In this document: positions 18,431 through 42,284 of the stretch, in pieces
Layout: every line of letters starts with the position of its first letter
Position numbering within the stretch: position 1 is the first letter of the stretch
Assembly: GCF_002775205.1 (NCBI RefSeq)
Contig: NC_036456.1
Location: forward strand, 8,335,463 to 8,399,462
Direction: 5' to 3'
Source of the DNA: Xiphophorus maculatus
Lineage: Eukaryota; Chordata; Actinopteri; Cyprinodontiformes; Poeciliidae
Length of the DNA: 64,000 nt
Translations under genes and position numbers: made by a program
The notes under the pieces: model-generated
What the model saw: the letters and a program-made list of their open reading frames with translations, nothing else
Told to the model about the DNA's origin: nothing
Databases searched by the model: none

Positions 18431-18438
18431 TTTATAGT

Positions 18439-19522: not shown

Positions 19523-19552
19523 CCTTGCTGCGCGCATCCACATGGCAGAGAG

Positions 19553-19630: not shown

Positions 19631-19639
19631 GAGAGGAGA

Positions 19640-20640
19640 GGCGCGCCTCCCGCTCCGCCTCTTCATACCCGTTGCCCAGGAGCTTTAACAAAAGCAGCAG
19701 AGGAATTTGCCACTTTCTCTCTCTACTACATGTCAGCTGCTTTGGGTAGATGGTTGAGTCATTGTTGAGAAAATATTTGCGTAGAGTCAATTAAAGAGAT
19801 TTGTACCATGACGCCTGTTACAACTTTATTTTATTTAAATAATGTAATGTAGTTGCAGGTAAATAAAAGATGGTTGTCTTGTGAGTGAAACCTGTTTATT
19901 CTCAGAGCGGTGAAAACAGATCAAAGGTAAAAGAAATGATCACAATATTAGTGAACGATGTTGAGAATTATCACTGTAGCTACAGTTTTAAATTACTATT
20001 CCAATCAGAAGTTTGGCATATTCTAATTTTATATTCCAATTTTAGTTAGCAATATTACTTCCTCCGCTCTTTGCTCACTTACAGACACAAGCTGGGTAGG
20101 TGAGGTGATGACGCAATAATAAGAGGCAGGAGGGTAAGAGACCAGGCAGACAGAATAAAGAGAGCAAACTTTTCCCTCAGGAAAACTGTAAGTTGTGCAG
20201 AAGAACAAATCAGCGCGTTTTCCAGTTTAATAAGGTAAGTTTTGAAGAGGCTTGGCTGGCTCACTTTCCAGCACCTTTTTTGTTCTTTTCTCACATGCAC
20301 ACTGTAACCACAGACCCATGTGACGTGCTATTGACTCTGTTGACTCTACGGAAAAATCGCTGCTTCATTAACTGTGCAGAGCACAAGAATTTAAAAGCTA
20401 TTAATCCGGATGGGTTTATTTTATTGTCGCTGCAGCTGCAGTGGCTGTGATCACCAAAACAGCAGGACGCCACAACTGCATAGTTTACCAATAAAACATG
20501 AAGGAACGTGAAAGTCAGGGTTCTACTTATTGCAATTGCTATCGAAACCACAACAGTTTCAGTATGCAGAGCTGACTCAAAAGGAGCTGGGTTTTTTCAT
20601 AACATGCACAGTATTTTTGTTTAAAAAATACACTTTGCAA
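19640..20640. other. Junction between the minus-strand and plus-strand gene families
   Basis: The non-coding blocks at 19980-20155 and 20160-20340 recur near 10.0-10.65 kb and 17.1-17.26 kb. No gene was recognised. The segment separates the head of the last minus-strand receptor from the first plus-strand butyrophilin-like unit. Confidence 0.5.
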
Positions 20641-20852
20641 AATGCATGTGAGGTTTTATTTATTTGATTTACCCACAGCTGAAATGCCCGTTCATATGCA
20701 AATCATGCAATTATTTTATTCACATTTTGTTTACGTAGACTGAGATCACAAACAGGAAGCAGCCAGCAGTAGAGCTACCGGCCATCGATTAACGGAGAAA
20801 CGGACAGACAAGAGACGGATCGGGGCAGAGAGACATAGTGAAAGTTCTTCGA

Positions 20853-23800
20853 ATGTTTTCGGATATGACTTTCACATGCAGCTCGTCGATCCGTGTCTGG
20901 GCCACAAACCCAGGATGCCTCCTTTTCCTGTTTGTCCTGTCAGGTATTGATTTTATTTACCTTCTTTTGTCAAGCGTCTTTGGCTGCAATATATTGTTCA
21001 TTTACGTATAGTGTAGTTTTTTTGTGTGTAAACTTAGGCTTCAGGGTCCACTTCAACTTATCACTGAGCAAGTGTTATAAAAACAACTCCTGATGGCGAT
21101 ACAACGCAATTCAACCAGGAAGTGGGATATTCACAGCAATTTGTGGCGTCGAAGAGATTAAACTTGCATAACTATTGTTAAGGTGTTCAAGGCACGTCGA
21201 TTGTTAAAAGTTATAACTTTAATCTATGGGCTCGAAAATAGATTTGTCTGTTTTTACCTAGAAGTAAAAACAATAAAGTAATATTTATAAAGCTGTTCAT
21301 TTTCTGGCAAGATCTGACTCTTTTCTTAGGTCTACAGCAAATTTGCTTTTGTAGTGTAGAGGAACTAATTGAGTGATTAGCAAGTTTGCATATTCTAGTT
21401 TCTAAAAACTATTTGAGGCATTTCGCAAGAAACTCGTGCAATTTTAGCAGTTATTACCTTTTGTAAATGCAAATCAGCAACTTTTGGGTTTGAATTAAAA
21501 GCAAATTTAAACCTATAACCCTTCTTACATTACTGTTCAAAATAGAACACTATTGACATTTATATCGGAAAGGTTGGAGACCTTTCCAAACTTTCTGATT
21601 TAAGAATCACTTTCCTCAATGCATCGTACTGTAAATGTTTGTGTTACTCTATGTAAACTCCAAGGCGGCATATTGTTTGGCAAAATCAGTGCAGAGCAGC
21701 AAATGTCATAGAAGAAGGTGCTCTGGTCGGATTGGCTCTTAGCATTTGTTCTCCACTTATGCTGTACAGATTGTCAGTTTGTTTTGCCAGGAGTTTGACT
21801 AGGCCATTGTAACACATGGCTTAACTTTCTAAACCCTTCAGCTTCTGTTTAAACCACCTTCAGATGAGAGAGTGATACCTTAAACTTTGTTGGCAGCAGT
21901 GCAGTTGTGTTAAATTCACAATAATAATAATAATAAAAACACCATTGGATTTCTCTTTTCATAGTTTTTTTATTTCTATTCTCCCCATCAGGTTCAGCCT
22001 CAGCAGATATCGTCCCACAGACAATAACAGCCTATGTGACTGAAATCGTCGTCCTGCCGTGCCACATCACTGTGGATGGTGAACTCCCCACGGTGGAGTG
22101 GTCCAAGGAGGGCTTAAGGGAAAACAGCATCACCTTACTGTACCGGGACGGCTGCGAGACGTTTGGGATGAAGAATCCAGCCTTCCACTACAGGACAAAC
22201 CTTCTTTTGAACAAACTGAAGGACGGCAACATCTCTCAGATCATTTACAACCTGAGGGTGTCTGATGGAGGCAAGTACAACTGCAGGACCCTCAGGGGGA
22301 AGGAGTGGCAGGTTCACGCGATTATCGTCCTTAATGTGGGTGAGTCTTGGTCTTATGTTTGGCTTCATGGCAGGACTATGCTTTGTACTGCATCAGATAA
22401 TCAATCTTTATCAAAAGTCCTATAATAGTTGGTTGAATCCCATTCCAGGTGCCACGTCAAAGCCAGAGCTCACAGTTGTTCCCTCCACTGAGGGTGGAGA
22501 ACTGACCCTGGAGTGTAAGGCGGAGTGCTGGTTCCCAGAACCTGACATCACGTTTTACGATGACGAAAGGAACGAGATTCCAGCAGAAAAACCAACAAGA
22601 GGGCCAAACTCTAGAGAATGTTTTACAGTTACCAGGAGAGCAGTTGTGCAGACTAAAATCAACAGGTAATTACAGGTTTATGTGTTTTAGATAAAGTCAG
22701 TAAAAGTTGGCAGTAAATGCCAAAGTTTTTGTGCCTCCACATGCTGTCTTTTCCTTTTATTCACATGATTCTTAGCAACTATAGGAGAGGGGAACACATC
22801 ACTACACTTATTTTCCATTCAAGGCGAAAGTCCAGTTTCTCTGGCACTAAAGCGACAAAATAATTTCCCCTTGTATATGTTGATACAGTAAAACCAGCTG
22901 ATGTCTTATTACATCAGATATTAGAACATTGTGCTCAATTTACAAATTCTCTCCTTTTTTTTCAAATCTAGAAATAAAAGTAAAACTGACACTTTGTCTT
23001 TTTTTTTTTTTTTTTTACCACAGAGTGACCTGCAAAGTCCACGAGAGAAAGTTCAATCAGACCAAGAACACAGAGATTTACATCCCAGGTATATCAGATT
23101 ACACTGATCTGAAATGAAACACCCAAAACATTCTTTCATGGTTGTACTTTAAGAGCTTCGTAAGCATAAACTGCTCTATTATGCAGTGCAGTTTTCTGCA
23201 GTGCACATTAGTTTTTACATGCCAGTTTGAGTTTACATCGTACTGTAAAATCATGATCTATTGCCGCTAACTGGACACCACGGCCATGTTTGCACCACAT
23301 TAACATAAAAACAAAAATTGGTGAAAATTTAGCCAGAACAAAGAGTAACTAAGAAGTATTATTTACTTTGCATGTCTCCTTTTACACATGTTCCAAAAAA
23401 AAAAAAAATTTACTCATGTACTGTGCATCATAATATGCTCATTTTTGCTCTATTAACATTTCAGATGGCTGGATGAGGTCCTGCTCAAACACGGCAATAA
23501 TCACAGGAATCGTCACTTCTTTCGTGACAGGGTTAATAATATGTGGAATTGTTTTCCTGGGAGACAAAAAATCCTGCGGTAAGTAAGCTCACCCGAGCCG
23601 AGTGAAGAAAGAAACTATTTTTTCTAAATTACTTTAGTCGTATTTCATTTTCTTTGGCTTCAGATAAATCCTTACTTTCGAACAGAAATCACAAGGAGAT
23701 ATTGGTCTCTAAATACAACGAAACGTCCAACTAAAAATGCCTTAACTAAGAGAAGTAATTGTGCAAAATATTGCGCTTGCAATAAGCTGAACATTTCTTA

Positions 23801-24806
23801 GTTGCATCTGTTATTTGGAACTTTGATTCTGGAAAAGCAGGAAATTTTAAAATGGGAGATGTGTAGCACTAGGCTGTCGCAGGTTCGATTCCCGGCCTGG
23901 TGAACTTTGCCGCATGTCTTCCCCCTTCTCTCATTACCCACTTCCTTGTCAATTCACTATCCAATAAAGGCCACTAGAGCCAATAAAACCTTTAAAAAAC
24001 AAAACAAAACAGACCAAAAAAGCTAAAAAAAATGAAGACGGGGGTGTAGGTTCAGTAATAAAACAATGCATCTATTGTATACATTAGAGGGATACAATGG
24101 GATAGTGCAAACCAGCCTGGTGCTGTGTCTAAATTCATTTAATACCTTTCATTTGCAATACGTGTCATTTTCCTTCAACTTCAAAGTAGAACAATGCGCC
24201 ACTTTGTGTTGGTCAACAACATAAGATCCTAAAAGCACACATTGAAGTTTGTTGTGAAAGGTTACAAAAGTCCACATGGTATGGAAACGTCAGGAAAGGA
24301 GCTGGACTTCTACACTAATAAAATAAGTTGCACATAAAATCATTTTCTTTGCAATGGTATATTTGAAAAGTCACGTGTGAAGCAAGTGTCAACGGATATT
24401 TTCTTTCTGTAATTACACAGGGAGAGGACAACACTCCAGAAATGGAGGTATGAAAGAAGCTGTTCAAGAGAAGGAAGAGGCAGAGAGGAATGGATACAGA
24501 TACAGAGGTACCTCACAGGAAGAGCAGTCCACAGATGACTCCATGATCTCGCCAGATGGCACAGGACCAATAGCCCAAACGCCCAGTTACAACGTGGCCA
24601 CAGGACAGGACACGTCCACCATGAAAACGTCTCAAATGACTGTTGTAAGACGAAACAAAACCCTTAGCTTATTGAGCAATGACAGACCTAGATCCATGTC
24701 TTCTTCGCCTTCTTCTCTGTTCCCTCCCAGTACCATAATCTCCCGGGCAAATACCAATGAGAGCTCAGAGACGCTGTTAAATGAACAAGGAAACCACAAC
24801 AACTAA
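20853..24806 (+). CDS. Butyrophilin/B7-like receptor, copy A, 406 aa
   Basis: Six exons: 20853-20943, 21992-22339, 22449-22665, 23024-23088, 23465-23578 and 24421-24806, all GT-AG, total 1221 nt. The signal peptide is MFSDMTFTCSSSIRVW plus NPGCLLFLFVLSG. The V domain (about residues 32-147) has VVLPCHITVDGELPTVEWS and VSDGGKYNCRT. The C domain has LECKAECWFPEPDITFYD, the W-F-P-x-P mark of butyrophilin/B7 C domains, and is split across exons 3-4 (VTCKV). The membrane segment is IITGIVTSFVTGLIICGIVFLG. The 128-residue tail is hydrophilic and Ser/Thr-rich. There is no B30.2 domain and no clear ITIM. The longer N-terminus possible in copies B and C is absent because the upstream ATG reads ggg. 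A likely T-cell co-signalling or recognition molecule by family; its partner is unknown. Confidence 0.83.
23865..24012 (+). mobile_element. 5'-truncated tRNA-derived SINE in intron 5 of copy A
   Basis: It has a B-box-like gcaggttcgattcccggc, the body cgcatgtcttcccccttctc and an A-rich 3' end (tttaaaaaacaaaacaaaac). The same insertion sits at 31673-31818 in copy B and is absent from copy C. Confidence 0.65.
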
Positions 24807-24810
24807 AACT

Positions 24811-25196
24811 AGGCCTGTCACAATGAGCAACAGGTCAAGTCCTGTTGCTCATTCAATTTAGCTCGAAATTATCGGACTAACTTAAAATGAGCTTGATCAC
24901 TTCTATTCTTATGAAATTAGAATAGGAATTTTATCTCCAGATAAAATTTGCAGAGAATTTTTTTTTTCTGGAGACATCATTATGTGTTTCATTTTGTTGT
25001 GTGTTGTTTTGATTTGATTGTGTTTTGGTTATTTTGTATCTTTTGGATATCTAAGATATCTCCCAGTTCCAGTGTTAAGTGTTCTTTACAAGACTTAAAG
25101 TTTTTAGATATTTGAGAGTGAAAACTTGCCTTGTTATGCCATTATCTGTAACCTCTAGGAAAATGTGTTGTCTAGCAAAATTGACAGCGACGGGCC
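24811..25196. mobile_element. hAT-type MITE in the 3' flank of copy A
   Basis: The left end aggcctgtcac is mirrored by gcgacgggcct at the right. The interior (taacctctaggaaaatgt, then tagcaaaatt) is shared with the element at 39634-39781. Directly after the gene stop it contains a perfect 13-bp stem (24822-24834 with 24841-24853, 6-nt loop). Confidence 0.5.
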
Positions 25197-26284
25197 TCAA
25201 AGGATCAGGACAAAAGCCTACAAAACTAATTTAAAACCAAGTATTCCAAGACTTCCTCTCAGGGGTTCCTCTTCAGTTTTCTTATCCTCAGGTTTCAGTC
25301 TTAAAAGTGTACATAATTTTTAAAACATCTCTTGTCCTCTTGTACGAAAAAGATATTGCGACTATCGTCATATGCAGTTCCAGTTAGCATTTGGGCTTGT
25401 TATTGAGCCAAAAACAAGTCTTAAATTATGTGGGAGTAAGATTAAAACCATCTTTCCATAATTCAGTGTTAGACTTTTTAAAAATCTGCATTTACTGAAT
25501 GTTTTGTTGTACTAGAATTGTGTTTACTTTACATTAAACAGGGAACTGGCCTTGGTAACTGTGACGTAATTTGTGAGTGACTCATTAGATTCTGACTGTT
25601 GACAGGTTGTTGGAGGGTGGTTAGGTGTTTGTACGTTGTTGGGCTTTCTAAGATGTGTGTTTGAATGTTTTCTCAGGTGTTTTATATGACAGTGTTTCAA
25701 TTCAGCCTAGCGTTTCCTTGACGAGTACACTGTGTTGTGGCCATTTATGCTGATTTTTTGTAAATCGTAAGTTCTGTCAATTTAGTTTTTCTTTAGGCAG
25801 TTAGAATGTGCTTTAGTTGGTTTATAACCAAAATCTGTCATTTTAATTTAAAATTGTTTAGATTATTTTTGGTAACTTTTGGACCTTCCCATTAATTTAA
25901 GTGATTAAGGATACACTGGAGGGCTTGGCGCAGGCCTTTAGTTTGGCAAATGACAGGATGCTTTTGGAAAATGATTTTTATTTATTTTTTTTACCACTTT
26001 TTGTACTTGAAACATCAGATCAAGTTAACTTTCTTTTTCATCTAACTTGTAAGAGATTTTTAGTTATTGTTCTCTATATATTTTTGCCAGAAAACATATA
26101 CATTTTTTTCAAACAACCAAGTCGGAAGTGCGTGCAAGAACAAAACCACCCTGCTGCCACCCACGGCCTTTCCTGGAAATCTTTGCTTTTGGAACTTAGA
26201 AGGCAGCGACACAAACTATTTGCTTCAACTTCTGTCGTTGTCAAAGAAACTACATTATTTGATGCTTTTTGTTGGCACCTGATG

Positions 26285-26818
26285 CGTCAGTTCTGTAAAT
26301 GGTGCTGCCTTCCCGGCCACTCATATCATCCCTCCATGCTTCAAAGGGAAAGCTACATATGCACTGGCATGTGATCTAGTAGTAATAAAACAACTGCACA
26401 TAGCAGAAGACTCCTCACTCGCTGGTGGTGCACATAAAGCAACTCAGGTCTCAAGTATATATAAAACCAAGGAGACAGTTGTCGAAAAACAAAAATATAA
26501 CACACCCTCTGGCCAGTGTTGGCGTAAACGGTTTTACGTGTCCAGGGACCATCATGACCTCTGATCCTAAGTGGTACGATGGTGTCGGCCATGTTGTCAA
26601 GAATTTACACCACATTTGTGTTCTTTCTTAAATGTGTGAACATTTCACTGTTGCCTCCAGGCTTCGATTTATGTGTTCTTATTCTTGTTTGTCTTCTGAT
26701 AGAACAGGAGGAAGTGTTTTTACATTTGAGCTTTTTCTGTAATGTATTGTTGTGTTGGAGCAACAAAGCAAAGCAAGTTTTAGACGTACTGACAATAAAA
26801 TATGATCTTGATTTGACT
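26285..26818 (+). mobile_element. Degenerate LINE, reverse-transcriptase C-terminal remnant (unit A)
   Basis: The translation GFTCPGTIMTSDPKWYDGV resembles the FLGTTISSDLKW motif of fish non-LTR retrotransposons. The end caataaaatatgatcttgat resembles the LINE 3' end with aataaa and tgatt repeats. The copy lies at the same place in units B and C, so it predates the duplications. Unit C retains an upstream RT piece. Confidence 0.55.
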
Positions 26819-26919
26819 TGAATTCTTGGATTTTACTTCTCTTGTCATTCTAGTCTATGTGCATCTGGCTGGTATTTATTGAATGTTTTGTTCACGAGAC
26901 TGGGAGTGAGATTGCTCCT

Positions 26920-27200
26920 TGCTTTCATCCATACGTTATCTACTCCCAGATGTCTTTGCAGGTTTATGTGGAAGATGGTTCCTATCTTGGTTATTGGGTG
27001 AGAGGTAAGATATGTTCTGGACAGGTCATCCATCTGTCCATCACAGGGCAACACAGGCAGACACAGGACAGGCAACCATACACACATTCTTTAAAGGTCA
27101 ATTTAGGGAGACCAATTACCCTAATAGTCATGGTTTTACACTGTGGGAGAAAACCACACATGCAAATTCCATGCAGAATGACTGCAGGGCGCTGCTAACT
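26920..27200 (+). repeat. L2-like LINE 3' tail (unit A)
   Basis: Recognised from ctggacaggtcatccatctg, tcacagggcaacacaggcag, caatttagggagaccaatta and gcaaattccatgcagaa. This is the fish L2-type 3' tail. The same copy is at 34747-35020 and 41170-41440. Confidence 0.65.
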
Positions 27201-27501
27201 GTGCCAATGTCAGCCATCTGATAAATTGGACATGATTGATTTAAAGAGCAAATGGTCGTCTGTGTACTGTTATCAGTCTAGTGAGTGACAAACAACTTGA
27301 TAAAATAAAAGTATTTATAGATTGTTTTGCATTTCTCTGAATTGCTTAAAAATAACCTAAGATTTGTTGAGTCTTTTGAAACATGCAGCCTGCCTTTATT
27401 TACCCACAGCTGAAATGCAAATCATGCAATGATTTTATTCACATTTTGTTTTCTTCTTTGACTCAGTATAATATGAAGGAAAGATAATTTTTCTAAAATT
27501 A

Positions 27502-27506
<5 letters not shown>

Positions 27507-27600
<94 letters not shown>

Positions 27601-27622
27601 TATATATATATATACAGTATAT
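27507..27622. repeat. (TA)n microsatellite
   Basis: About 45 consecutive TA dinucleotides followed by tacagtatata variants, upstream of exon 1 of copy B. An equivalent array precedes copy C at 35358-35442; none precedes copy A. Confidence 0.9.
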
Positions 27623-27871
27623 GTGTGTGTGCGTGCGTGGGAGATGTTTCTGTTCCCTGTGTCAAGCCTCTTGACACGCCCCAAAATATCAGGTATCAAG
27701 GTTTCAGTTTCACGTCTATAAAAAATAATCCTGTATAACATCACGTGAGAACGTAGACTGAGCTCACAAACAGGAAGCAGCCAAGCAGTAGAGCTACCGG
27801 CCATCGATTAACGGAGAAACGGACAGAAAGATTTCGGATCGATGCAGAGAGACTTAGTGAAAGTTCTTCGA

Positions 27872-30800
27872 ATGTTTTCGGATATGACTTTCACATGCAG
27901 CTCGTCGATCCGTGTCTGGGCCACAAACCCAGGCTGCCTCCTTTTCCTGTTTGTCCTGTCAGGTAGCTATTGATTTTATTTACCTTCTTTTATCAAGCGT
28001 CTTTGGCTGCAAATGCAAACTTACGGAAGAGGATTAGGGCCACCAAAAAAAAAGAAAAGAATTCTGACTTTAATCTGATTAAAGTCAGGACTGTTTTTTC
28101 GGTGGCCCTAATCCTCTTCCGTACAATCTACACGTATAGTGTATAGGGTGACCATATTTTCATTTGGGAAAACCAGGACACCTTGGAGCGGATCTCTGTT
28201 CCCATGCACAGAGTTGTCTGTGGCATGCACTCAATTAACATAGGCCTACGTAATCCTACAATAACACGATATTTACAGTTGGTTTATTAAAAATGCTTTT
28301 CAGTAAAAGTCAACAGCAATAACTCCAATAACAAATGATTTTCGACAAAGTACCGTGTGATCGAGCTAGCACTACTCTCACCTCGGACAGCTGTTTTGTG
28401 TTTCTCGGTGTCCAGGTGGCTTTTCAGATCCCTTGCACCTCCATTGGACACCGAGACATATGTGCCTGCTTTGCACACTGTGCACAAGGCCTCCCATTTG
28501 TCTCGACCCGGTCTGAAAACGGGGGAATCTCTTTTGTAAATCGTGGGTAAACATACATTTGCGCTTTGGCATGTTGTTGTCGTACTGACAGAAACGCTAT
28601 CTATCTTCTGATTAAGAACAGGGCTGCCCGCACTGACGCGGCTCAGGGATTACGTGACACGCAGCGCCGGGGGCATTGTCCTAGTGCCTGTAAATTTAAT
28701 GGTCCAATGAAGGTAATTTAAAAAACAGGACATTTCCTCACTTTCTAAAAAAAAACCCCGCCCGGGACAGGACGTGAAATACGGACATGTCCCGGGAAAT
28801 ACGGACGTTTGGTCACCCTAATAGTGTACGTAGTTTGTTTTACTTGGGCTTTAGGGTCCACTGCAGCTTATTACTGCGCGACAAGTTATAAAAAAAACTC
28901 CTTATGGCGATACAGTGCAACGCAATTCAACCAGGAAGTGGGATATTCACAGCAATTTGTGGCGTCGAAGAGATTAAACTTGCATAACTATTGTTAAGGT
29001 GTTCAAGGCACGTCGATTGTTAAACGTTATGACTTTAATCTTTACTGGGCTCGAAAATAGATTTGTCTGTTTTTACCTAAAAGTAAAAACAATAAAATAA
29101 AAATAATACTTATAAAGCTGTTCATTTTCTGCCAAGCTCTGACTCTTTTCTCAAGTCTAAAGCAAATTTGCTTTTGCAGTGTAGAGGAACTAATTGAGTG
29201 TTTTGCAAGTTTCCAAAATCTAGTTGCTAAAACCTATTTGAGCCATTTCACAAGAAAGCTCATGCAATTTTAGCAGTTATACCTGATTGTAGGTAAAAGT
29301 AGCTGATTTGTAAATGCAAATCAGCTACTTTTTGTTTGAATTAAAAGCTGATTTAAACCTATAACCCTTCTCCTTACATTACTGTTCAAAAGGGTCAATA
29401 GAACAGAACCTTTCCAAACTTTCTGATTTAAGAATCACTTTCCTCAATGCATCGTACTGTAAATGTTTGTGTTACTCTATGTAAACTCCAAGGCGGCATA
29501 TTGTTTGGCAAAATCAGTGCAGAGCAGCAAATGTCATAGAAGAAGGTGCTCTGTACTTATGCTGTACAGATTGTCAGTTTGTTTTTGCCAGGAGTTTGAC
29601 TAGGCCATTGTAACACATGGCTTAACTTTCTAAACCCTTCAGCTTCTGTTTAAACCACCTTCAGATGAGAGAGTGATACCTTAAACTTTGTTGGCAGCAG
29701 GGCAGTTGTGTTAAATTCACAATAATAATAATAATAATAATAATAAAAACAGCATTGGATTTCTCTTTTCATAGTTTTTTTATTTCTATTCTCCCCATCA
29801 GGTTCAGCCTCAGCAGATATCGTCCCACAGACAATAACAGCCTATGTGACTGAAATCGTCGTCCTGCCGTGCCACATCACTGTGGATGGTGAACTCCCCA
29901 CGGTGGAGTGGTCCAAGGAGGGCTTAAGGGAAAACAGCATCACCTTACTGTACCGGGACGGCTGCGAGACGTTTGGGATGAAGAATCCAGCCTTCCACTA
30001 CAGGACAAACCTCCTTTTGAACAAACTGAAGGACGGCAACATCTCTCAGATCATTTACAACCTGAGGGTGTCTGATGGAGGCAGGTACAACTGCAGGACC
30101 CTCAGGGGGAAGGAGTGGCAGGTTCACGCGATTATCGTCCTTAATGTGGGTGAGTCTTGGTCTTATGTTTGGCTTCATGGCAGGACTATGCTTTGTACCG
30201 CAACAGATAATCAATCTTTATCAAATGTCCTAAAATAGTTGGTTGAATCCCATTCCAGGTGCCACGTCAAAGCCAGAGCTCACAGTTGTTCCCTCCACTG
30301 AGGGTGGAGAACTGACCCTGGAGTGTAAGGCGGAGTGCTGGTTCCCAGAACCTGACATCACGTTTTACGATGACGAAAGGAACGAGATTCCAGCAGAAAA
30401 ACCCACAAGAGGTCCAAACTCTAGAGAATGTTTTACAGTTACCAGGAGAGCAGTTGTGCAGACTAAAATCAACAGGTAATTACAGGTTTATGTGTTTTAG
30501 ATAAAGTCAGTAAAAGTTGGCAGTAAATGCCAAAGTTTTTGTGCCTCCACATGCTGTCTTTTCCTTTTATTCACATGATTCTTAGCAACTATAGGAGAGG
30601 GGAACACATCACTACACTTATTTTACATTCAAGGCGAAAGTCCAGTTTCTCTGGCACTAAAGCGACAAAATAATTTTCCCTTGTATATGTTGATACAGTA
30701 AAACCAGCTGATGTCTTATTACATCAGATATTAGAACATTGTGCTCAATTTACAAATTCTCTCCTTTTTTTTCAAATCTAGAAATAAAAGTAAAACTGAC

Positions 30801-32612: not shown

Positions 32613-32616
32613 AACT

Positions 32617-33004
32617 AGGCCTGTCGCAATGAGCAACAGGTCAAGTCCTGTTGCTCATTCAATTTAGCTCGAAATTATCGGACTAACTTAAAATGAGCTT
32701 GATCACTTCTATTCTTATGAAATTAGAATAGGAATTTTATCTCCAGATAAAATTTGCAGAGAATTGTTTTTTTTCTGGAGACATCATTATGTGTTTCATT
32801 TTGTTGTGTGTTGTTTTCATTTGATTGTGTTTTGGTTATTTTGTATCTTTTGGATATCTAAGATATCTCCCAGTTCCAGTGTTAAGTGTTCTTTACAAGA
32901 CTTAAAGTTTTTAGATATTTGTGAGTTAAAACTTGCCTTGTTATGCCATTATCTGTAACCTCTAGGAAAATGTGTTATCTAGCAAAATTGACAGAGATGG
33001 GCCT
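32617..33004. mobile_element. hAT-type MITE in the 3' flank of copy B
   Basis: Same element and position as 24811-25196. It carries the same perfect 13-bp stem with a 6-nt loop at 32628-32659, directly after the stop codon. Confidence 0.5.
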
Positions 33005-34104
33005 CAAAGGATCAGGACAAAAGCCTACAAAACTGTAATTTAAAACCAAGTATTCCAAGACTTCCTCTCAGGGGTTCCTCTTCAGTTTTCTTATCCTCAG
33101 GTTTCAGTCTTAAAAGTGTACATCCTTTGTAGAACATCTCTGGTCTTCTTGTACGAAAAAGATATTGCGACTATCGGCATATGCAGTTCCAGTTAGCAAT
33201 TGGGCTTGTTATTGAGCCAAAACAAGTCTTAAATTACTTGGGAGTAAGATTAAAACCATCTTTCCATAATTCAGTGTTAGACTTCTTAAAAATCTACATT
33301 TACTGAATGTTTTGTTGTACTAGAATTGTGTTTACTTTACATTAAACAGGGAACTGGCCTTGGTAACTGTGACGTAATTTGCAAGTGACTCATTAGATTC
33401 TGACTGTTGACAGGTTGTTGGAGGGTGGTTAGGTGTTTGTACGTTGTTGGGCTTTCTAAGATGTGTGTTTGAATGTTTTCTCAGGTGTTTTATATGACAG
33501 TGTTTCAATTCAGTCTAGCGTTTCCTTGACGAGTACACTGTGTTGTGGCCATTTATGCTGATTTTTTTAATCAATCGTAAGTTCTGTCAATTTAGTTTTT
33601 CTTTACGCAATTAGAATATGCTTTAGTTGGTTTATAACCAAAATCTGTCATTTTAATTTAAAATTGTTTAGATTATTTTTGGTAACTTTTGGACCTTCCC
33701 ATTAATTTAAGTGATTAAAGATACACTGGAGGGCTTGGCGCAGGCCTTTAGTTTGGCAAATGTCCAGTGTGATGATGGGATGCTTTTGGAAAATGATTTT
33801 TATTTATTTTTTTACCACTTTTTGTACTTGAAACATCAGATCAAGTTAACTTTCTTTTTCATCTAACTTGTGAGAGATTTTTAGTTATTGTTCTCTACAT
33901 ATTTTTGCCAGAAAATATATAAATTTTTTTCAAACAATCAAGTCGGAAGTGCGTGCAAGAACAAAACCACCCTGCTGCCACCCACGGCCTTTCCTGGAAA
34001 TCTTTGCTTTTGGAACTTAGAAGGCAGCGACACAAACTATTTGCTTCAACTTCTGTCGTTGTCAAAGAAACTACATTATTTGATGCTTTTTGTTGGCACC
34101 TGAT

Positions 34105-34646
34105 GCTGATGGGTCAGTTCTGTAAATGATGCTGCCTTCCCGGCCACTCATATCATCCCTCCATGCTTCAAAGGGAAAGCTACATATGCACTGGCATGTG
34201 ATCTAGTAGTAATAAAACAACTGCACATAGCAGAAGTCTCCTCACTCGCTGGTGGTGCACATAAAGCAACTCAGGTCTCAAGTATATATAAAACCAAGGA
34301 GACAGTTGTCGAAAAACAAAAATATAACACACCCTCTGGCCAGTGTTGGCATAAACGGTTTTACGTGTCCAGGGACCATCATGACCTCTGATCCTAAGTG
34401 GTACGATGGTGTCGGCCATGTTGTCAAGAATTTACACCACATTTGTGTTCTTTCTTAAATGTGTGAACATTTCACTGTTGCCTCCAGGCTTCGATTTATG
34501 TGTTCTTATTCTTGTTTGTCTTCTGATGGAACAGGAGGAAGTGTTTTTACATTTGAGCTTTTTCTGTAATGTATTGTTGTGTTGGAGCAACAAAGCAAAG
34601 CAAGTTTTAGACATACTGACAATAAAATATGATCTTGATTTGACTT
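34105..34646 (+). mobile_element. Degenerate LINE remnant (unit B)
   Basis: Duplicate of 26285-26818. The GFTCPGTIMTSDPKW motif and the caataaaatatgatcttgat end are both retained. Confidence 0.55.
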
Positions 34647-34746
34647 GAATTCTTGGGTTTTACTTCTCTTGTCATTCTAGTCTATGTGCATCTGGCTGGT
34701 ATTTATTGAATGTTTTGTTCACGAGACTGGGAGTGAGATTGCTCCT

Positions 34747-35020
34747 TGCTTTCATCCATACGTTATCTACTCCCAGATGTCTTTGCAGGTTTATGTGGAA
34801 GATGGTGCCTATCTTGGTTATTGGGTGAGAGGTAAGATATGCTCTGGACAGGTCATCCATCTGTCCATCACAGGGCAACACAGGCAGACACAGGACAGGC
34901 AACCATACACACATTCTTTAAAGGTCAATTTAGGGAGACCAATTACCCTAATAGTCATGGTTTTACACTGTGGGAGAAAACCACACATGTATATTCCATG
35001 CAGAATGACTGCAGGCTGGT
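34747..35020 (+). repeat. L2-like LINE 3' tail (unit B)
   Basis: Duplicate of 26920-27200, with ctggacaggtcatccatctg and caatttagggagaccaatta. Confidence 0.65.
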
Positions 35021-35352
35021 TTCCTGATGCAAGGAAATGGCGCTACTAACTGTGCCAATGTCAGCCATCTGACAAATTGGACATGATTGATTTAAAAAGC
35101 AAATGGTCGTCTGTGTATTGTTATCAGTCTAGTGAGTGACACACAACTTGATAAAATAAAAGTATTTGTAGATTGTTTTGCATTTCTCTGAAATGCTTAA
35201 AAATAATCTAAGGTTTGTTGAGTCTTTTGAAACATGCAGCCTGCCTTTATTTACCCACAGCTGAAATGCAAATCATGCAATGATTTTATTCACATTTTGT
35301 TTTCTTCTTTGACTCAGTATAATATGAAGGAAAGATAATTTTTCTAAAATTA

Positions 35353-35357
<5 letters not shown>

Positions 35358-35435
<78 letters not shown>

Positions 35436-35442
35436 TATATAT
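35358..35442. repeat. (TA)n microsatellite
   Basis: Long TA array upstream of exon 1 of copy C, followed by a tgtg-rich tract and a g-run; counterpart of 27507-27622. Confidence 0.9.
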
Positions 35443-35712
35443 GTATGTATGTGTGTGTGTGTGTGGGGGGGGGGTGGGTGCGTGCGTGCGTGGGAGATGT
35501 TTCTGTTCCCCTGTGTCAAGCCTCTTGACACGTCCAAAATATCAGGTTTCTATGTATCAAGTTGACGTCTATAAAAATAATCCTGTATAACATCACGTGA
35601 GAACGTAGACGACGGGATCACAACCAGGAAGCAGCCAGCAGTAGAGCTAACGGAGAAACGAACAGACAAGGTGTTTGGATCGATGCAGAGAGACTTAGTG
35701 AAAGTTCTTCGA

Positions 35713-38700
35713 ATGTTTTCGGATATGACTTTCACATGCAGCTCGTCGATCCGTGTCTGGGCCACAAACCCAGGCTGCCTCCTTTTCCTGTTTGTCCTGT
35801 CAGGTATTGATTTTATTTACCTTCTTTTATCAAGAGTCTTTGGCTGCAAATGCAAATTTACGGAAGAGGATTAGGGCCACCGAAAAAAAAAAAGATTTTG
35901 GAGATTAAACTCAGAATTTTGACTTTAAAGTCAGAATTCTTTTTTTTTCTTTTTTCGGTGGCCCTAAACTAGGGTGGCCATATTTTAATTTGGGAAAACC
36001 AGGACAGCTTGGACCGGGGGGGGGGTGCGGAGGGGGGTTGGTCGGAAGACCAGAACACTATGGAGCGCGAGGGGGGTTGAGGGGACGGGGGGGGGGGGGG
36101 GGGGGGGCAGTGTTGGGAAAACCAGAACACCTTGGAGCGGTGGGGGGGGGGGGGGGCTCTAAAAGCGGGGAAACTATACATTTGCGCTTTGGCATGTTGT
36201 TGGCGTACTGACGGCCACGCTGTTTATCTTAAGAACAGGGCTGCCCGCACTGACTCTGCTCAGGGATTACGTCACACGTTCTCGGCATAACACCGTGCGC
36301 AGTGCCCTAGTGCCTGTAAATTTAATGGTCCAATGAAGGTAATTTAAAAAACAGGACATTTCCTCACTTTCTAAAAAAAACCCCGGGACGCCCGGGACAG
36401 GACGTGAAATACGGACATGTCCCGGGAAATACGGACGTTTGGTCACCCTACCTAAACCTCTTATACGTATAGTGTAGTTTTTCTTACTTGGGCTTTAGGG
36501 TCCACTGCAGCTTATCACTGCACGACAAGTTATAAAAAATAAAAAAAAACTCCTTATGGCGATACAATGCAATGCAATTCAAGTAGGAAGTGGGATATTC
36601 ACAGCAATTTGTGTGAATTTAACTTTCAAAGAAGTTAAACTGGCATAACTATTGTTAAGATGTTCAAGGCACGTCGATTGTTAAACGTTATGACTTTAAT
36701 CTTTACTGGGCTCGAAAATAGATTTGTCTGTTTTCACCTAGAAGGAAAAACAATAAAATAATATTTTAAAAGCTGTTCATTTTCTGCCAAGCTCTGACTC
36801 TTTTCTTAAGTCTACAGCAAATTTGCTTTTGCAGTGTAGAGGAACTAATTGAGTGATTTGCAAGTTTCCAAAATCTAGTTGCTAAAACCTATTTGAGCCA
36901 TTTCACAAGAAAGCTCATGCAATTTTAGCAGTTATTACCTGATTGTAGGTAAAAGTAGCTGATTGGTAAATGCAAATCAGCTAATTTTTGTTTGAATTAA
37001 AAGCTGATTTAAAGCTATAACCCTTCTCCTTACATTACTGTTCAAAAGGGTCAATAGAACAGAACCTTTCCAAACTTTCTGATTTAAGAATCACTTTCCT
37101 CAATGCATCGTACTGTAAATGTTTGTGTTACTCTATGTAAACTCCAAGGCGGCATATTGTTTGGCAAAATCAGTGCAGAGCAGCAAATCTCATAGAAGGT
37201 GGTCTGTACTTATGCTGTACAGATTGTCAGGTTGTTTTTGCCAGGAGTTTGACTAGGCCATTGTAACACATGGCTAAACTTTCTAAACCCTTCAGTTGGC
37301 AGTTTAAATCAACCTCAGATGAGCGAGTGATACCTTAAACTTTGTTGGCAGCAGGGCAGTTGTGTTAAATTCACAATAATAATAATAATAAAAACACCAT
37401 TGGATTTCTCTTTTCATAGTTTTTTTATTTCTATTCTCCCCATCAGGTTCAGCCTCAGCAGATATCGTCCCACAGACAATAACAGCCTATGTGACTGAAA
37501 CCGTCGTCCTGCCGTGCCGCATCACTGTGGATGGTGAACTCCCCACGGTGGAGTGGTCCAAGGAGGGCTTAAGGGAAAACAGCATCACCTTACTGTACCG
37601 GGACGGCTGCGAGACGTTTGGGATGAAGAATCCAGCCTTCCACTACAGGACAAACCTCCTTTTGAACAAACTGAAGGACGGCAACATCTCTCAGATCATT
37701 TACAACCTGAGGGTGTCTGATGGAGGCAGGTACAACTGCAGGACCCTCAGGGGGAAGGAGTGGCAGGTTCACGCGATTATCGTCCTTAATGTGGGTGAGT
37801 CTTGGTCTTATGTTTGGCTTCATGGCAGGACTATGCTTTGTACCGCAACAGATAATCAATCTTTATCAAAAGTCCTATAATAGTTGGTTGAATCCCATTC
37901 CAGGTGCCACGTCAAAGCCAGAGCTCACAGTTGTTCCCTCCACTGAGGGTGGAGAACTGACCCTGGAGTGTAAGGCGGAGTGCTGGTTCCCAGAACCTGA
38001 CATCACGTTTTACGATGACGAAAGGAACGAGATTCCAGCAGAAAAACCAACAAGAGGGCCAAACTCTAGAGAATGTTTTACAGTTACCAGGAGAGCAGTT
38101 GTGCAGACTAAAATCAACAGGTAATTACAGGTTTATGTGTTTTAGATAAAGTCAGTAAAAGTTGGCAGTAAATGCCAAACTTTTTGTGCCTCCACATGCT
38201 GTCTTTTCCTTTTATTCACATGATTCTTAGGGGTTTTGTGAGCAACTATAGAAGAGTTGATACACTTATTTTCCGTGTAAGGCGATAGTCCAGTTTCTCT
38301 GGCACTAAAGCGACAAAATAATTTTCCTTGCTGTATGTTGATACAGTAAAACCAGCTGATGTCTTACATCAGATATTAGAACATTGTGCTCAGATTACTA
38401 TTTCCCTCTCTTCTTTTAAATCTTGAAATAAAAGTAAAACTGACACTTTGTCTTTTTTTTCCCACAGAGTGACCTGCAAAGTCCACGAGAGAAAGTTCAA
38501 TCAGACCAAGAACACAGAGATTTACATCCCAGGTATATCAGATTACACTGATCTGAAATGAAACACCCAAAACATTGTGGTTGTACTTCAAGAGCTCCTA
38601 TTTTATTTATTTGCACTGGATTAAACATTGATAGTTTTTAAACCCAGTTTGAGTTTGTTGTGTGGTCTAGAAACGTGGTCATAATAATCAAAAATGTTTT

Positions 38701-39620
38701 TCTATTAACATTTCAGATGACTGGATCAGGTCCTGCTCAAGCAAGGCAGCCATCACAGGAACTGTCACTTTCTTATTCACAGGGTTAATAATATGTGGAA
38801 TTGTTTTCCTGGTGCACAAGAAGTTCTGCAGTAAGTACGCTCACTCAAGCCAAATTAAGGATTAAGCCACTTTTTAAAGATTACTTTAGTCATATTTCAC
38901 TTTCTTTTGGCTTCAGATAACGGGAGTCAATGGGGATAGTGTAGACCAGCCTGGTGCTGTGTCTAAATGCATGTAACGCCTTTCATTTGTAATAAGTTTG
39001 TTTGAAAATTATGTATTATTTTCCTTCATCTTTTCACTACTTTACATAAAATCCCAAAAACACAAGATTAGAAAAAAGCCCAAATGGTATGAAAGTGTTG
39101 GAAAAAGGAGCTGGATTTTAACAATAGTAAAATAAGATGCATATAAAAACATCTTTTTTTTTTTTTCGTTAGGATTTTATATATTTGGAACGTCAAAAGA
39201 AAGTGTTGACTGATATTTTCTTTCGGTAATTACACAGGGAGTGGACAAAACTTCTGTCGGTCAAGAAATACACATATGAAAGAAGAGAAAGATGAGATGG
39301 ACAGGCGCAGTGGTACCTCACAGGAAGAGGAGTCCACATATGATTCCAGAACATCACCAAACGGGACAGAGCTAACAGACCAGTCACCCGTTGACAACAG
39401 GTCACCAGGACAGGACTCGTCCATGATAAAAAGTTCTGGATCGACTGCTTCAAGACGAGACAAAACCCCCGGCTCACTGAACACAGACCGACATAGGTCT
39501 GTGTCCTTTTCCTCCTCCAAAGGAAACTCTCTGCTCCCTAATACATATCAAAGAAGCTTAAGTCACCGGTCAAATGCAAGTGAGAGTTCAGAGTCACTGT
39601 TGGATAAACCAGAAAGCTAA
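35713..39620 (+). CDS. Butyrophilin/B7-like receptor, copy C, 405 aa
   Basis: Six exons: 35713-35803, 37447-37794, 37904-38120, 38468-38532, 38717-38830 and 39238-39620, total 1218 nt, all GT-AG. The V and C domains nearly match copies A and B (VVLPCRITV instead of VVLPCHITV). The membrane exon (ITGTVTFLFTGLIICGIVFL) and tail differ strongly. The tail has MKEEKDEMDRRSGTSQEEES and later SESLLDKPES, with only two tyrosines and no clear ITIM. It ends with the same Ser-rich layout as A/B, so the tails are homologous but much older than the ectodomain similarity. An optional ATG upstream (35683) is in frame. Confidence 0.82.
35859..35969. mobile_element. Foldback element in intron 1 of copy C, interrupted
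   Basis: The left arm acggaagaggattagggcca is intact. The right arm is cut after ggtggccctaaac by the hAT-like element at 35970; its continuation (ctaaacctctta) resumes after 36450. Confidence 0.75.
35970..36450. mobile_element. hAT-type element with poly-G expansions in intron 1 of copy C
   Basis: Same family as 28144-28820 (tagggtggcca start, tggtcaccct end), flanked by cctaaac at 35963-35969 and 36451-36457. Its left part holds three tandem versions of a piece ending accagaacaccttggagcg, each followed by a long G run (36016-36158). Most of the finger-coding part is missing. Confidence 0.8.
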
Positions 39621-39633
39621 AACGTGGAAAGGA

Positions 39634-39781
39634 CTAGCCCTGTCACTAACCTGCATTGTTATGCCATTCTCAGTATGGTACATGTACATGTACATGGTCT
39701 CAAAACAACGATGTTATTGTTTATCGCAATAACCTCTAGGAAAATGTATTATTTAGCAAAATTTATTATGACAGGGCTAGA
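39634..39781. mobile_element. hAT-type MITE in the 3' flank of copy C
   Basis: The 11-bp perfect inverted ends tagccctgtca and tgacagggcta enclose ttgtttatcgcaataacctc and tagcaaaattt. Related to 24811-25196 and to the fragment at 63258-63334. Confidence 0.65.
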
Positions 39782-39907
39782 AAGGACAGGACACAAGACT
39801 ACAAAGGCGTAATCAAAAACCAAGGATTCAAAGACTTGTGTTCAGGGATCGTTTTCTACTAGTCAGGTTCCAGTCTGAACAGTTCACATCCTTCCTAGAA
39901 CATCTCC

Positions 39908-39973
39908 GGGGCCTCATGCAGAGAGATATGGGGCCTCATGCAGAGAGATATGGGGCCTCATGCAGAGAGATAT
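39908..39973. repeat. Three tandem 22-bp repeats
   Basis: The unit starts ggggcctcatgcagagagat and repeats three times without change, directly before a MITE that starts with the same ggggcctcatg. Confidence 0.9.
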
Positions 39974-40195
39974 GGGGCCTCATGTATAAAAAAGTGAGCA
40001 GTTTTCACAACAAAACTTTGCCGTACGGACAAATTTAGAAAAGCGCGGTGCACAAAAAGATCCAGATGTATAAATTCCAATTTGCGGGAAAATAGAGTGC
40101 AGCTGCTAGTCCGGCATTTTTATACATGCCGCCTTGTGCGTAAAATATGGCGCTGCACATTGTTTGTGCTTACGCACGCTTTATACACGAGGCCC
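39974..40195. mobile_element. MITE with ggggcctcatgtataaa ends
   Basis: The left end ggggcctcatgtataaa is mirrored on the right by tttatacacgaggccc. The interior is short and non-coding, with gcttacgcacg near the right end. It belongs to a fish MITE type with these ends. Confidence 0.75.
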
Positions 40196-40419
40196 ATGGA
40201 GACTATGGCATTCATGGCAAGGTCCAGTTTCAGTCAGCAAGTTGGGGGAATAATCATTATCCCTAAAACAAGCTAGGAATTATGGTAGAATTTCTTTTTC
40301 GGGTATTTTATGTAAGATTGCTTCAATTCAGCCTAATGTTTCCTTAATGAGTACAGACCATTTGCTTTAACTTCTGTCATTATGGAAGAGAAGTGTTACA
40401 ACTACCTACCCACTACGTT

Positions 40420-41066
40420 ATTTGGCATCGAGGGTAAACAGGTCTGTAAATGGTGCCGCCTTCCCGGGGCCTCATAACATCCCTCGATATTTCAAAGGGA
40501 AAGCTACGTATGTGCTGGAGCTATTTATCGATTTTAGCTTTGCTTTTAACATCGTCCCAATGAGGCTGTGTGTTAAACTCCTGAGGTTGCATGTCATGTC
40601 ATCCATTTGCAAATAGGTCTTTGACTTTTTCTTTTACAAAACACAAGTTTGAGTCACTCTCTCGTGCTACTTCAACACCAATGACTCCACGTCGCATCAT
40701 GACTCGGTCAGGATGGTAAACGGTTTTATGTGTCTAGGGACCATCCATCATGACCTCTGATCTTAAGTGACCTCTGGTACGATTGTGTCAGCCATATCGT
40801 CAAGAAGGTACACCAAAGTTGTGTCCTTTTTTTACATTTTTACAAAGGACACAACTTTTTAAGAGTTACTTCAACATTTTACTGTTACTTCTATTCCCTG
40901 ATCTATGTGTTCTTGTGTATCTTCTGATAGATTATGAGGAATTGTTTTTACCTCTTACCTTTTTATTTAGTCTGATTTATGTTCTAACTGTGTCAAGTTT
41001 CTGTAAAGTATTACTATGTTGGAGCAACAAAGCAAGTACTGACAATAAAATATCATCTTCATTTGA
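40420..41066 (+). mobile_element. Degenerate LINE, reverse-transcriptase remnant (unit C)
   Basis: LELFIDFSFAFNIVPMRLC matches the reverse-transcriptase motif LFIDFSSAFNTIVP of fish non-LTR elements. The 3' end caataaaatatcatcttcat is as in units A and B. The frame is broken and the copy is old. Confidence 0.65.
40815..40858. repeat. Perfect hairpin, 15-bp arms
   Basis: aaagttgtgtccttt at 40815-40829 and its exact complement at 40844-40858, 14-nt loop. Units A and B lack the inverted arm here. Confidence 0.8.
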
Positions 41067-41169
41067 CTTGAATTCTTGGGTTTTACTTCTCTTGTCATTC
41101 TAGTCTATGTGCATCTGGCTGGTATTTATTGAATGTTTTGTTCACGAGACTGGGAGTGAGATTGCTCCT

Positions 41170-41440
41170 TGCTTTCATCCATCCGTTGACTGCTCCCAGA
41201 TGTCTTTGCAGGTTTATGTGGGAGATGGTTCCTATATTGGTTATTGGGTGAGAGGTAAGATATGTTCTGGACAGGTCATCCATCTGTCCATCACAGGGCA
41301 GCACAGGCAGACACAGGACAGACAACCACACACACATTCTTTAAAGGTCAATTTAGGGAGACCAATTACCCTAATAGTCATGGTTTTACACTGTGGGAGA
41401 AAACCACACATGCAAATTCCATGCAGAATGACTGCAGGGC
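41170..41440 (+). repeat. L2-like LINE 3' tail (unit C)
   Basis: Third copy of the tail at 26920-27200. Confidence 0.65.
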
Positions 41441-41516
41441 GCCGCTAACTGTAGTAGTAGCGCCCTACAGTCAAATCATGTCCAATTTATCATGTCTGAT
41501 AAATTGGACATGATTT
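41428..41516. repeat. Inverted duplication with perfect 20-bp hairpin
   Basis: aaatcatgtccaatttatca at 41473-41492 pairs exactly with 41497-41516 over a 4-nt loop. Just upstream, gcagggcgccgct and tagcgccctac are also inverted copies of each other. Units A and B have only one orientation. Confidence 0.8.
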
Positions 41517-41669
41517 ATTTAAAGAGCAAATGGTCATATTGTTATCAGTCTAGTGAGTGACACACAACTTGATCAAATAAAAGTATTTGTAGATTGTTTT
41601 GCATTTCTCTGAATTGCTTTAAAAATAATCTAAGGTTTGGTGAGAGTCTTTTGAAACATGCAGCCTGCC

Positions 41670-42284
41670 TCTAAAACAAGATATTTTATTTTGGTTTGAT
41701 ATTTTGCTGTATTTTCTCCCTCTTCTCTGCTTTCTGCCCCATCATCACAACTGAACGACATGAACTTTGTGTTTAGTAATTTAAAAAAACAACAAAAAAA
41801 CAGCAGTGAAACTACTCATAAAATCTTAAAATTAAAGTTGAAATAATATCCTTGTTAGTCAGATTACACAGTACTGACTGAGTGAGGAGTCCAGGGTGTC
41901 ATTTATGCTTCAGTCTCAAATGGAGGCAGCAGTTTCGAGCAGAACGAGTCCAGATGTTGCACAAAGGAACTAGGCTGTTCTGAAAGTGCTGTTGTGAAAA
42001 CATTTCTAACTATTGTCTTTCTGCACAGCAATGCTTGGCTGCGCTGTAAATGACTTAGACATTTCAAAAGATTTATTAATTTCAATTAAACTTAGAATGA
42101 AAACTATAATAATAATAATTATAATAATTATGATTATTATTATTATAATAAAAATAATTTATACTAACAATAAACAGTTATTGTTAACCAGGAAGTGTCC
42201 ATTATTCCCTCCCCTTCCAAAGCGGAACTGTGGATCTAAAGCCTCTCGAACCTCGGGGCGTCGAGGTTTACTGCTGGAACAAAA
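41670..42284. other. Intergenic, 5' flank of the coiled-coil receptor gene
   Basis: Non-coding; contains an A/T-only tract with ataataatt repeats at 42098-42165. No promoter motif stands out. Confidence 0.4.

What the first reader, a model, noticed from the sequence alone, without database searches (positions are those of the whole stretch)
20650..41670. Unit B is a recombinant between unit A-like and unit C-like sequence
Seen directly: B and C share the upstream (TA)n array, the foldback, and intron 1 variants (ttaaacgttatgacttta; gtcaatagaacagaacc) that A lacks. B and A share late intron 1 (gaagaaggtgctctg), the intron 5 SINE and nearly identical exons 5-6 and 3' flank, while C differs strongly there. 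The switch lies in intron 1 near 29.4-29.6 kb. This fits unequal crossing-over or gene conversion between tandem immune genes.
Basis: seen in the sequence. Interest (0 to 1): 0.75.

Follow-up and report, generated by a model that had tools for sequence, protein, structure and literature searches.

The report
Hybrid middle gene in butyrophilin-like array
In a fish-like animal genome, the middle of three neighbouring butyrophilin-like immune receptor genes is a hybrid, with the front end of one neighbour and the body of the other, which is the ordinary fingerprint of misaligned recombination in a tandem gene array.

Summary
Units A, B and C (about 20664-41672) each carry an intact six-exon gene for a butyrophilin-like receptor (signal peptide, V, C2, TM, tail). 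A-C divergence is equal at both ends of the unit (8.6%, 8.8%), but B changes partner: in the 5' part B-C is 5.1% and A-B 7.4%; in the 3' flank A-B is 1.9% and B-C 9.2%. B and C share a (TA)n block and an intron-1 MITE; both inter-unit junctions copy one breakpoint. One unequal crossover C x A would make this, though part ages match only after dropping clustered patches. B's protein equals A's but for one residue, so the swap concerns the front end. Chicken BG and primate BTN3A genes are close precedents: a new member of a known kind.

The parts
20664..27395 (+). Unit A: 5' flank, butyrophilin-like gene A, 3' flank
   Evidence: Self-BLAST and three-way alignment; left edge of homology about 20664
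20853..24806 (+). Gene A, exons 20853-20943, 21992-22339, 22449-22665, 23024-23088, 23465-23578, 24421-24806; 406 aa, no internal stop, GT/AG at every intron of the model
   Evidence: V-set and C2-set_3 (butyrophilin Ig-C) in Pfam
27395..35246 (+). Unit B: the hybrid unit
27872..32612 (+). Gene B, exons 27872-27962, 29802-30149, 30259-30475, 30831-30895, 31271-31384, 32227-32612; 406 aa, one residue different from A (K/R in the V domain)
35246..41672 (+). Unit C
   Evidence: right edge of homology about 41670
35713..39620 (+). Gene C, exons 35713-35803, 37447-37794, 37904-38120, 38468-38532, 38717-38830, 39238-39620; 405 aa; ectodomain near-identical to A/B, TM and tail divergent
   Evidence: Pfam
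27395..29407 (+). C-like part of B (5' flank, exon 1, early intron 1), with short A-like patches at 27758-27831 and 28921-28999
   Evidence: Informative characters and Viterbi path; BC 45/874, AB 62/841
29408..29532 (+). Switch interval: 125 bp identical in A (21580-21704), B and C (37064-37188)
29533..35246 (+). A-like part of B (late intron 1 to 3' flank), AB 70/5662 substitutions counted from A 21700
31055..32625 (+). A-B stretch with no substitution (A 23248-24819), 1571 aligned sites, covering exon 5, intron 5 with SINE, exon 6
   Evidence: 0 of 20000 permutations, also extreme in noncoding sites alone; one 1-bp homopolymer indel inside
27452..27750 (+). (TA)n-bearing 299-bp block shared with C (35303-35602), absent from A
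   Evidence: in the own-genome search only B and C match over the whole block, the other listed matches cover its (TA)n/TG part, query 56-190 (simple repeats are skipped there)
28022..28123 (.). Foldback MITE in intron 1 of B, shared with C, no remnant seen in A
   Evidence: Repeat with ends near 28022/28123: 82 matches listed, 40 of 425 candidates scored
28144..28820 (.). hAT-type element (type inferred from the 8-bp TSD and terminal repeats) private to B, TSD ATAGTGTA; A and C carry that site once, unoccupied
   Evidence: ends agree with genome copies, query 16/17 and 693-696
35970..36450 (.). Related element private to C, inserted inside the right arm of the shared MITE, 7-bp repeat CCTAAAC
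   Evidence: 87% over 290 bp and 92% over 48 bp to B's element
27386..27396 (.). Junction J1 between A and B; the same junction sequence recurs as J2 at 35237-35247
38600..41005 (+). Old divergent block of C (intron 4, exons 5-6, 3' noncoding); apart from short repeats, only A and B match it in the own genome

Best explanation
A tandem pair A-C with one duplication junction already existed. Misaligned pairing of C with A, and a crossover in a matched stretch of intron 1 (125 bp identical in all three today), made a third, middle unit B = C 5' end + A body. This joins a C-type promoter region, exon 1 and front of intron 1 to exons 2-6 of A; because exon 1 encodes the same signal peptide in all three, the protein of B is that of A (one residue different) and only the regulatory front end is new. 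Afterwards private hAT-type elements inserted into B and into C, and conversion homogenised a 1.6-kb A-B tract (TM and tail) and the V-C2 ectodomain of all three units, while C kept an old, divergent TM and tail. Shown: partner switch, breakpoint interval, shared junction, intact reading frames, identity tracts. Inferred: crossover rather than conversion, order of events, effect on expression.
For: Partner flip with equal A-C divergence at both ends: left AB 62/841, BC 45/874, AC 71/829; 3' flank AB 17/873, BC 78/845, AC 74/845; Fisher p for left vs 3' flank: AB 5e-8, BC 0.001, AC 0.93. A-B change point over the whole unit at B 29350, 0 of 5000 permutations. 125-bp three-way identity at the switch. 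Late intron 1 (B 29561-29801) already has 9 A-B to 1 B-C substitutions. B and C share the (TA)n block and the MITE. In the left part AB and BC differences are clustered (2 and 34 of 5000 permutations) while AC is not (911 of 5000), as if B were the patchy one. J1 and J2 are the same breakpoint sequence, as expected if the third unit arose by homologous exchange in an existing pair. B has 40 private substitutions and 11 private indels and its own hAT-type insertion with perfect TSD, so it is not an assembly chimera of A and C. The 1571-site A-B run without substitution: analytic p about 1e-8, noncoding alone about 2e-6. A-C dS 0.012 in exons 1-4 vs 0.466 in exons 5-6.
Against: Raw divergence of the two supposedly coeval parts differs (BC left 45/874 vs AB right 70/5662, p = 3e-12; vs AB 3' flank 17/873, p = 4e-4); the difference goes only after removing clustered patches that I chose after seeing the data (p = 0.12; p = 0.40). 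Other splits exist: the character-order test over the whole unit puts its best split between B 30203 and 30535, not in intron 1 (0 of 20000), driven by C's divergence; within intron 1 alone the best A-B split is at B 28884 (0 of 5000) and from the 5' flank to exon 3 A-C also splits at B 29358 (69/789 vs 21/1094, 0 of 5000), so a block alike in all three begins at the same place. Two-part order tests are weak: B 27395-30580, 2808 of 20000 (substitutions only 3252); intron 1 alone, 1247 of 20000 (substitutions only 1424). The runs test is strong unthinned (left 21, B 27395-30580 4, of 50000) but not after merging neighbouring characters (8726 and 7142 of 50000). B-C grouping on the left rests on 58 vs 32 characters, p = 0.008; substitutions only 44 vs 26, p = 0.04; none in the 5' flank and exon 1 substitutions. 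One genome, no outgroup for noncoding DNA.
Confidence: 0.66

Rival explanations
1. Gene conversion without crossover: three units already stood in tandem and B's 5' part was overwritten from C, or B's body from A.
For: Later conversion-like tracts exist (A-B 1571 sites, three-way V-C2 block). The left part looks patchy, with A-like islands at 27758-27831 and 28921-28999. Ages of the two parts differ in the raw counts.
Against: The third unit with an identical junction still needs an unequal exchange, which by itself gives a hybrid middle unit; a separate conversion is an extra step. The C-like part reaches to the junction.
Confidence: 0.27
2. No recombination in B: A alone evolved fast in its 5' part and C alone in its 3' part.
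For: With three sequences, B-C sites can be A-private changes and A-B sites C-private changes. A-C divergence also drops at the intron-1 switch.
Against: A-C divergence is equal in the 5' part and the 3' flank (8.6% vs 8.8%); A-B falls about sixfold and stays low to the end of the unit; the MITE and (TA)n block are shared by B and C.
Confidence: 0.04
3. Assembly artefact: B is a misplaced haplotype or a chimera of A and C reads.
For: No reads could be inspected; the units are up to 98-100% alike over long stretches.
Against: B has 40 private substitutions, 11 private indels and a private insertion with perfect TSD; the window lies inside one contig of a 704-Mb assembly in 101 contigs; of the matches listed for the 1-kb right flank only the locus itself covers its full length (the left flank was not searched).
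Confidence: 0.03

Closest known systems
Chicken BG gene region (butyrophilin homologues; Salomonsen et al. 2014, PMC4046983; abstract, passages and part 1 of section 8 seen)
   Same: Tandem array of butyrophilin-family genes in one orientation; hybrid genes with two kinds of 5' end and two kinds of 3' end and no clear groups in between; unequal crossing-over or deletion proposed; 5' end reported to set tissue of expression; no obvious pseudogenes.
   Different: BG genes have one V-like domain and many small tail exons that could form a coiled coil; here V plus C2 and one tail exon after the TM exon. Here only three units, and no expression data.
Primate BTN3A1/2/3 (passages of PMC6790196, which cites Afrache et al. 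2017; the latter not seen)
   Same: Three neighbouring butyrophilin genes; IgV domain homogenised by concerted evolution in hominoids.
   Different: Most BTN molecules carry a B30.2 domain (same passages); none is found in A or C by Pfam (B, one residue from A, was not scanned). Homogenisation here covers V and C2 plus the intron between.
CD300A/CD300C paired receptors in primates (passages of PMC12447643)
   Same: Ectodomain kept alike by gene conversion, divergent signalling parts.
   Different: I recognised no ITIM or ITAM by eye in the tails of A or C (no tool run), so opposite signalling is not shown.
Anti-Lepore-type hybrid genes from unequal crossover (recalled, no call)
   Same: Middle unit carries 5' end of the downstream gene and 3' end of the upstream gene.
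   Different: The breakpoint here spares the protein and swaps only the front end.

Membership tests
Butyrophilin-like / B7-type receptor | V-set followed by butyrophilin-type C2 domain, then TM | tested here: met
   Pfam V-set (26.6 and 28.0 bits, cut-off 26) and C2-set_3 (46 bits, cut-off 27) in A and C; best PDB match butyrophilin 1A1, E 5e-21, then BTN2A1 and BTN3A (98 distinct sequences matched, 60 shown); TM read by eye in exon 5
Butyrophilin sensu stricto | Intracellular B30.2/PRYSPRY domain | tested here: not met
   No B30.2 match in the A or C full-length proteins at E up to 0.1
Hybrid unit from unequal crossover in a tandem array | Middle unit has 5' of the downstream unit and 3' of the upstream unit | tested here: met
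Hybrid unit from unequal crossover in a tandem array | Inter-unit junctions are copies of one breakpoint | tested here: met
   J1 and J2, 2 of 2 junctions
Hybrid unit from unequal crossover in a tandem array | Both parts of the hybrid equally old | tested here: inconclusive
   Rejected on raw counts, not rejected after dropping clustered patches
Paired receptors with shared ectodomain | Ectodomains homogenised, tails diverged | tested here: met
   A-C dS 0.012 vs 0.466
Paired receptors with shared ectodomain | One activating and one inhibitory member | not testable with these tools
   No motif recognised by eye and no assay

The most novel reading that the evidence does not exclude
The array keeps one ligand-binding ectodomain uniform by conversion while shuffling two kinds of front end (expression) and two old kinds of tail (signalling) around it, so B is A's receptor placed under C's control; the two tail types (dS 0.47, flanked by about 8-9% divergence) may be ancient allelic lineages caught as neighbours rather than an old duplication. 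That would make chicken BG-like modular reshuffling a recurrent, independently arisen mode in butyrophilin-family arrays.
Probability: 0.2. Interest if true: 0.6.

Novelty: new member of a known kind. Interest (0 to 1): 0.33.

Why it matters
It is a worked example of how a third immune gene is made in a tandem array: breakpoint narrowed to about 125 bp, junction conserved, transposon insertions ordering the events. The consequence (same protein, other promoter region) and the neighbouring case of C (same ectodomain, other tail) suggest recombination reassorting control, binding and signalling parts separately, as reported for chicken BG genes, and this can be tested by haplotype sequencing and expression data.

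Tried and rejected
Rejected: uniform divergence, assembly chimera (private B changes), and the SINE as evidence for a switch (C lacks a larger block there). Looked for a closer donor of C's divergent core elsewhere in the genome: apart from short high-copy repeats only A and B match it, at 66-85% (52 matches, 40 of 1455 candidates scored), and C's TM-tail protein finds only A, B and C at E up to 1 (6 matches, 14 of 14 candidates scored). Considered A or C as the recombinant instead of B: either leaves a second pair unequal between the two ends, whereas B as recombinant leaves A-C equal; a fourth, lost copy as donor is not excluded. Considered coding constraint as the cause of the identical tracts: intron 5 (842 sites) has no A-B substitution and the ectodomain is low at synonymous sites too, so constraint is not enough. 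Order tests that came out weak or put the split elsewhere are listed under evidence against. Paper searches listed no teleost butyrophilin hybrid array by title or abstract start; that covers only those term sets and this library. PMC5829056 was opened for passages and gave only a reference entry. No structure prediction was run. Three sequences cannot polarise changes; the neighbouring related gene at 42.9-45.8 kb was not used as an outgroup because its V domain is only 53% identical.
Full report
What is there. The window is G000:C14:8335463-8399462 of a 704-Mb assembly in 101 contigs; from its immune genes and genome size I take it to be a bony fish, which is inference. Self-comparison shows three head-to-tail units. 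I modelled the same six-exon gene in each from splice signals and checked frames: A 20853-24806, B 27872-32612, C 35713-39620; the model introns are GT/AG, no frame has an internal stop, proteins are 406, 406 and 405 aa. Pfam gives V-set and butyrophilin-type C2-set_3 and no B30.2 in A and C (C also has a SARAF match far below its cut-off); the closest solved structures are butyrophilins 1A1, 2A1 and 3A. In the own genome the ectodomain finds these three, a related gene next door (53% in V, 51% in C2) and many weaker V or C2 domains: of 84 matches listed (150 of 179 candidates scored) 45 lie on the same contig at 20.9-24.5 Mb.

Is B a mosaic? Three-way alignment in anchored blocks gives, left of the switch, AB 62/841, BC 45/874, AC 71/829 differences, and in the 3' flank AB 17/873, BC 78/845, AC 74/845. 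A-C is equal in these two parts (Fisher p = 0.93) while AB falls (p = 5e-8) and BC rises (p = 0.001). This comparison leaves out C's divergent core and the ectodomain; it singles out B as the sequence that changes partner. A change-point scan of the A-B pair over the whole unit puts the best split at B 29350 with 0 of 5000 permutations as extreme. Between the last B-C character (29407) and the next A-B character (29533) lie 125 bp identical in all three, a plausible place for a homologous exchange.

Weak spots. In the left part B-C characters outnumber A-B ones 58 to 32 (p = 0.008; substitutions only 44 to 26, p = 0.04), so B's kinship to C there is clear but not overwhelming, and in the 5' flank with exon 1 (A 20732-20981) substitutions show none of it (12/248, 11/240, 14/234). 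Shuffling the order of characters within B 27395-30580 gives a two-part statistic as large in 2808 of 20000 shuffles, in intron 1 alone in 1247 of 20000; over the whole unit the statistic is beyond all 20000 shuffles but its best split is between B 30203 and 30535, set by C's divergence. Within intron 1 alone the best A-B split is at B 28884, and from the 5' flank to exon 3 the A-C pair splits at B 29358 too (69/789 vs 21/1094; 0 of 5000), because a block alike in all three starts there. The left part is patchy: a Viterbi path gives C, A (27758-27831), C, A (28921-28999), C (to 29407), A. AB and BC differences there are clustered (2 and 34 of 5000 permutations) and AC differences are not (911 of 5000), but AB differences downstream of the identical tract are clustered too (65 of 5000). 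The runs test agrees (21 of 50000, left part) but loses significance when neighbouring characters are merged (8726 of 50000), so the small islands may be multi-base mutations. A 28-bp indel at 29553 groups B with C just right of the switch. These do not undo the main flip but show that a single clean switch is a simplification.

Structural characters. A lacks a 299-bp (TA)n-bearing block present in B and C; over its whole length it is found only in B and C in this genome. Insertion or deletion cannot be told: I saw no target duplication. Exon 1 lies downstream of it, so the foldback and the hAT-type element lie in intron 1. The foldback is a many-copy MITE with ends near 28022 and 28123, shared by B and C, with no remnant seen in A. 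Beside it B carries a 677-bp hAT-type element (28144-28820; ends agree with genome copies) with a perfect 8-bp duplication ATAGTGTA; A and C have that site once. C carries a relative of it (35970-36450) inside the right arm of the MITE with a 7-bp repeat CCTAAAC, where B is uninterrupted. The two elements are 87% alike over 290 bp and 92% over 48 bp, less than their flanks. They are therefore two independent insertions, both later than the B-C exchange.

Mechanism. The junction A|B and the junction B|C are the same sequence, joining the right edge of the unit to its left edge. A third unit with a copied junction implies an unequal homologous exchange in an existing pair, and such an exchange between C on one chromatid and A on the other makes a middle unit with C's 5' end and A's 3' end. 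This is what B is. The model predicts equal age of both parts: raw counts disagree (BC left 45/874 vs AB right 70/5662, p = 3e-12; vs AB 3' flank, p = 4e-4), and agree only after removing clustered patches chosen afterwards (18/697 vs 68/4084, p = 0.12; vs 17/873, p = 0.40). So either later small exchanges altered the left part, or conversion rather than crossover shaped B. I put crossover at about 0.66 and conversion at 0.27; that B is recombinant in either way is above 0.9.

Later events. From A 23248 to 24819 there is no A-B substitution in 1571 sites (0 of 20000 permutations; noncoding alone analytic p about 2e-6), while the part downstream of it (B 32626-35246) has 54 in 2574: a recent A-B conversion over TM, SINE and tail is the best reading. 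In all three the V-C2 stretch is 98-100% alike, intron 2 included except A-B there (4/109).

C is the larger mosaic. Between A and C exons 1-4 have 2 synonymous differences in 165 sites (dS 0.012), the TM and tail exons 37 in 107 (dS 0.466, dN 0.297) (Fisher p = 4e-15). The best B-C and A-C change point is at C 38596. C's core is divergent in noncoding sequence too (JC 0.23 in introns 4 and 5, 0.56 downstream of the stop, against 0.21 and 0.36 in exons 5 and 6), has no nearer relative found in the genome, and falls back to about 4-5% near the unit's right end, with one divergent 32-site piece. Gene conversion with selection for distinct tails would leave such a divergence peak (general principle, recalled); captured ancient alleles would too.

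Meaning. The recombination in B leaves the protein as A's with one K/R change, and exchanges promoter region and front of intron 1. In chicken BG genes the 5' end was reported to set tissue expression and hybrids are common (PMC4046983: abstract, passages, part 1 of section 8). Primate BTN3A genes show homogenised IgV domains in hominoids (PMC6790196, passages), and CD300A/C show conversion of the ectodomain with divergent signalling parts (PMC12447643, passages). The present array combines these features on a small scale. It is a good example of a known process, not a new kind of thing.

Noticed in passing
38600-41005 and 37447-38532: Gene C shares its ectodomain with A and B (dS 0.012) but has an old divergent TM and tail (dS 0.47): shared binding part, different signalling part.
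   Followed up: yes
28144-28820 and 35970-36450; relative at 59721-60590: Two independent insertions of the same hAT-type family close together in intron 1 of B and C; the family has many copies, the larger listed pieces 88-96% identical to B's, a 196-bp piece at 59721 99% (76 matches, 40 of 376 candidates scored).
   Followed up: partly
42918-48641: A fourth, more distant butyrophilin-like gene (V 53%, C2 51% to A); an ORF at 47985-48641 with coiled-coil-like Pfam matches, all below cut-off, may be its tail.
   Followed up: no
14043-19684 (minus strand): Another set of repeated ORFs that look like Ig-domain proteins by eye; 15527-16711 and 18341-19510 are 87% alike, and 14043-14139 is 100% identical to 19167-19263, suggesting conversion there too.
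   Followed up: no
7708-8469 and 54836-56235 (minus strand), 63533-63937 (plus strand): Further ORFs with Ig-like domains, so the window looks like a mixed cluster of Ig-superfamily genes; 7708-8469 and 63533-63937 match V-set in Pfam, the 54.8-56.2 kb ones were judged by eye only.
   Followed up: no
39973-40207: High-copy repeat fragments within C's divergent 3' block (73-92% to the listed genome copies), with no match to A or B there.
   Followed up: no
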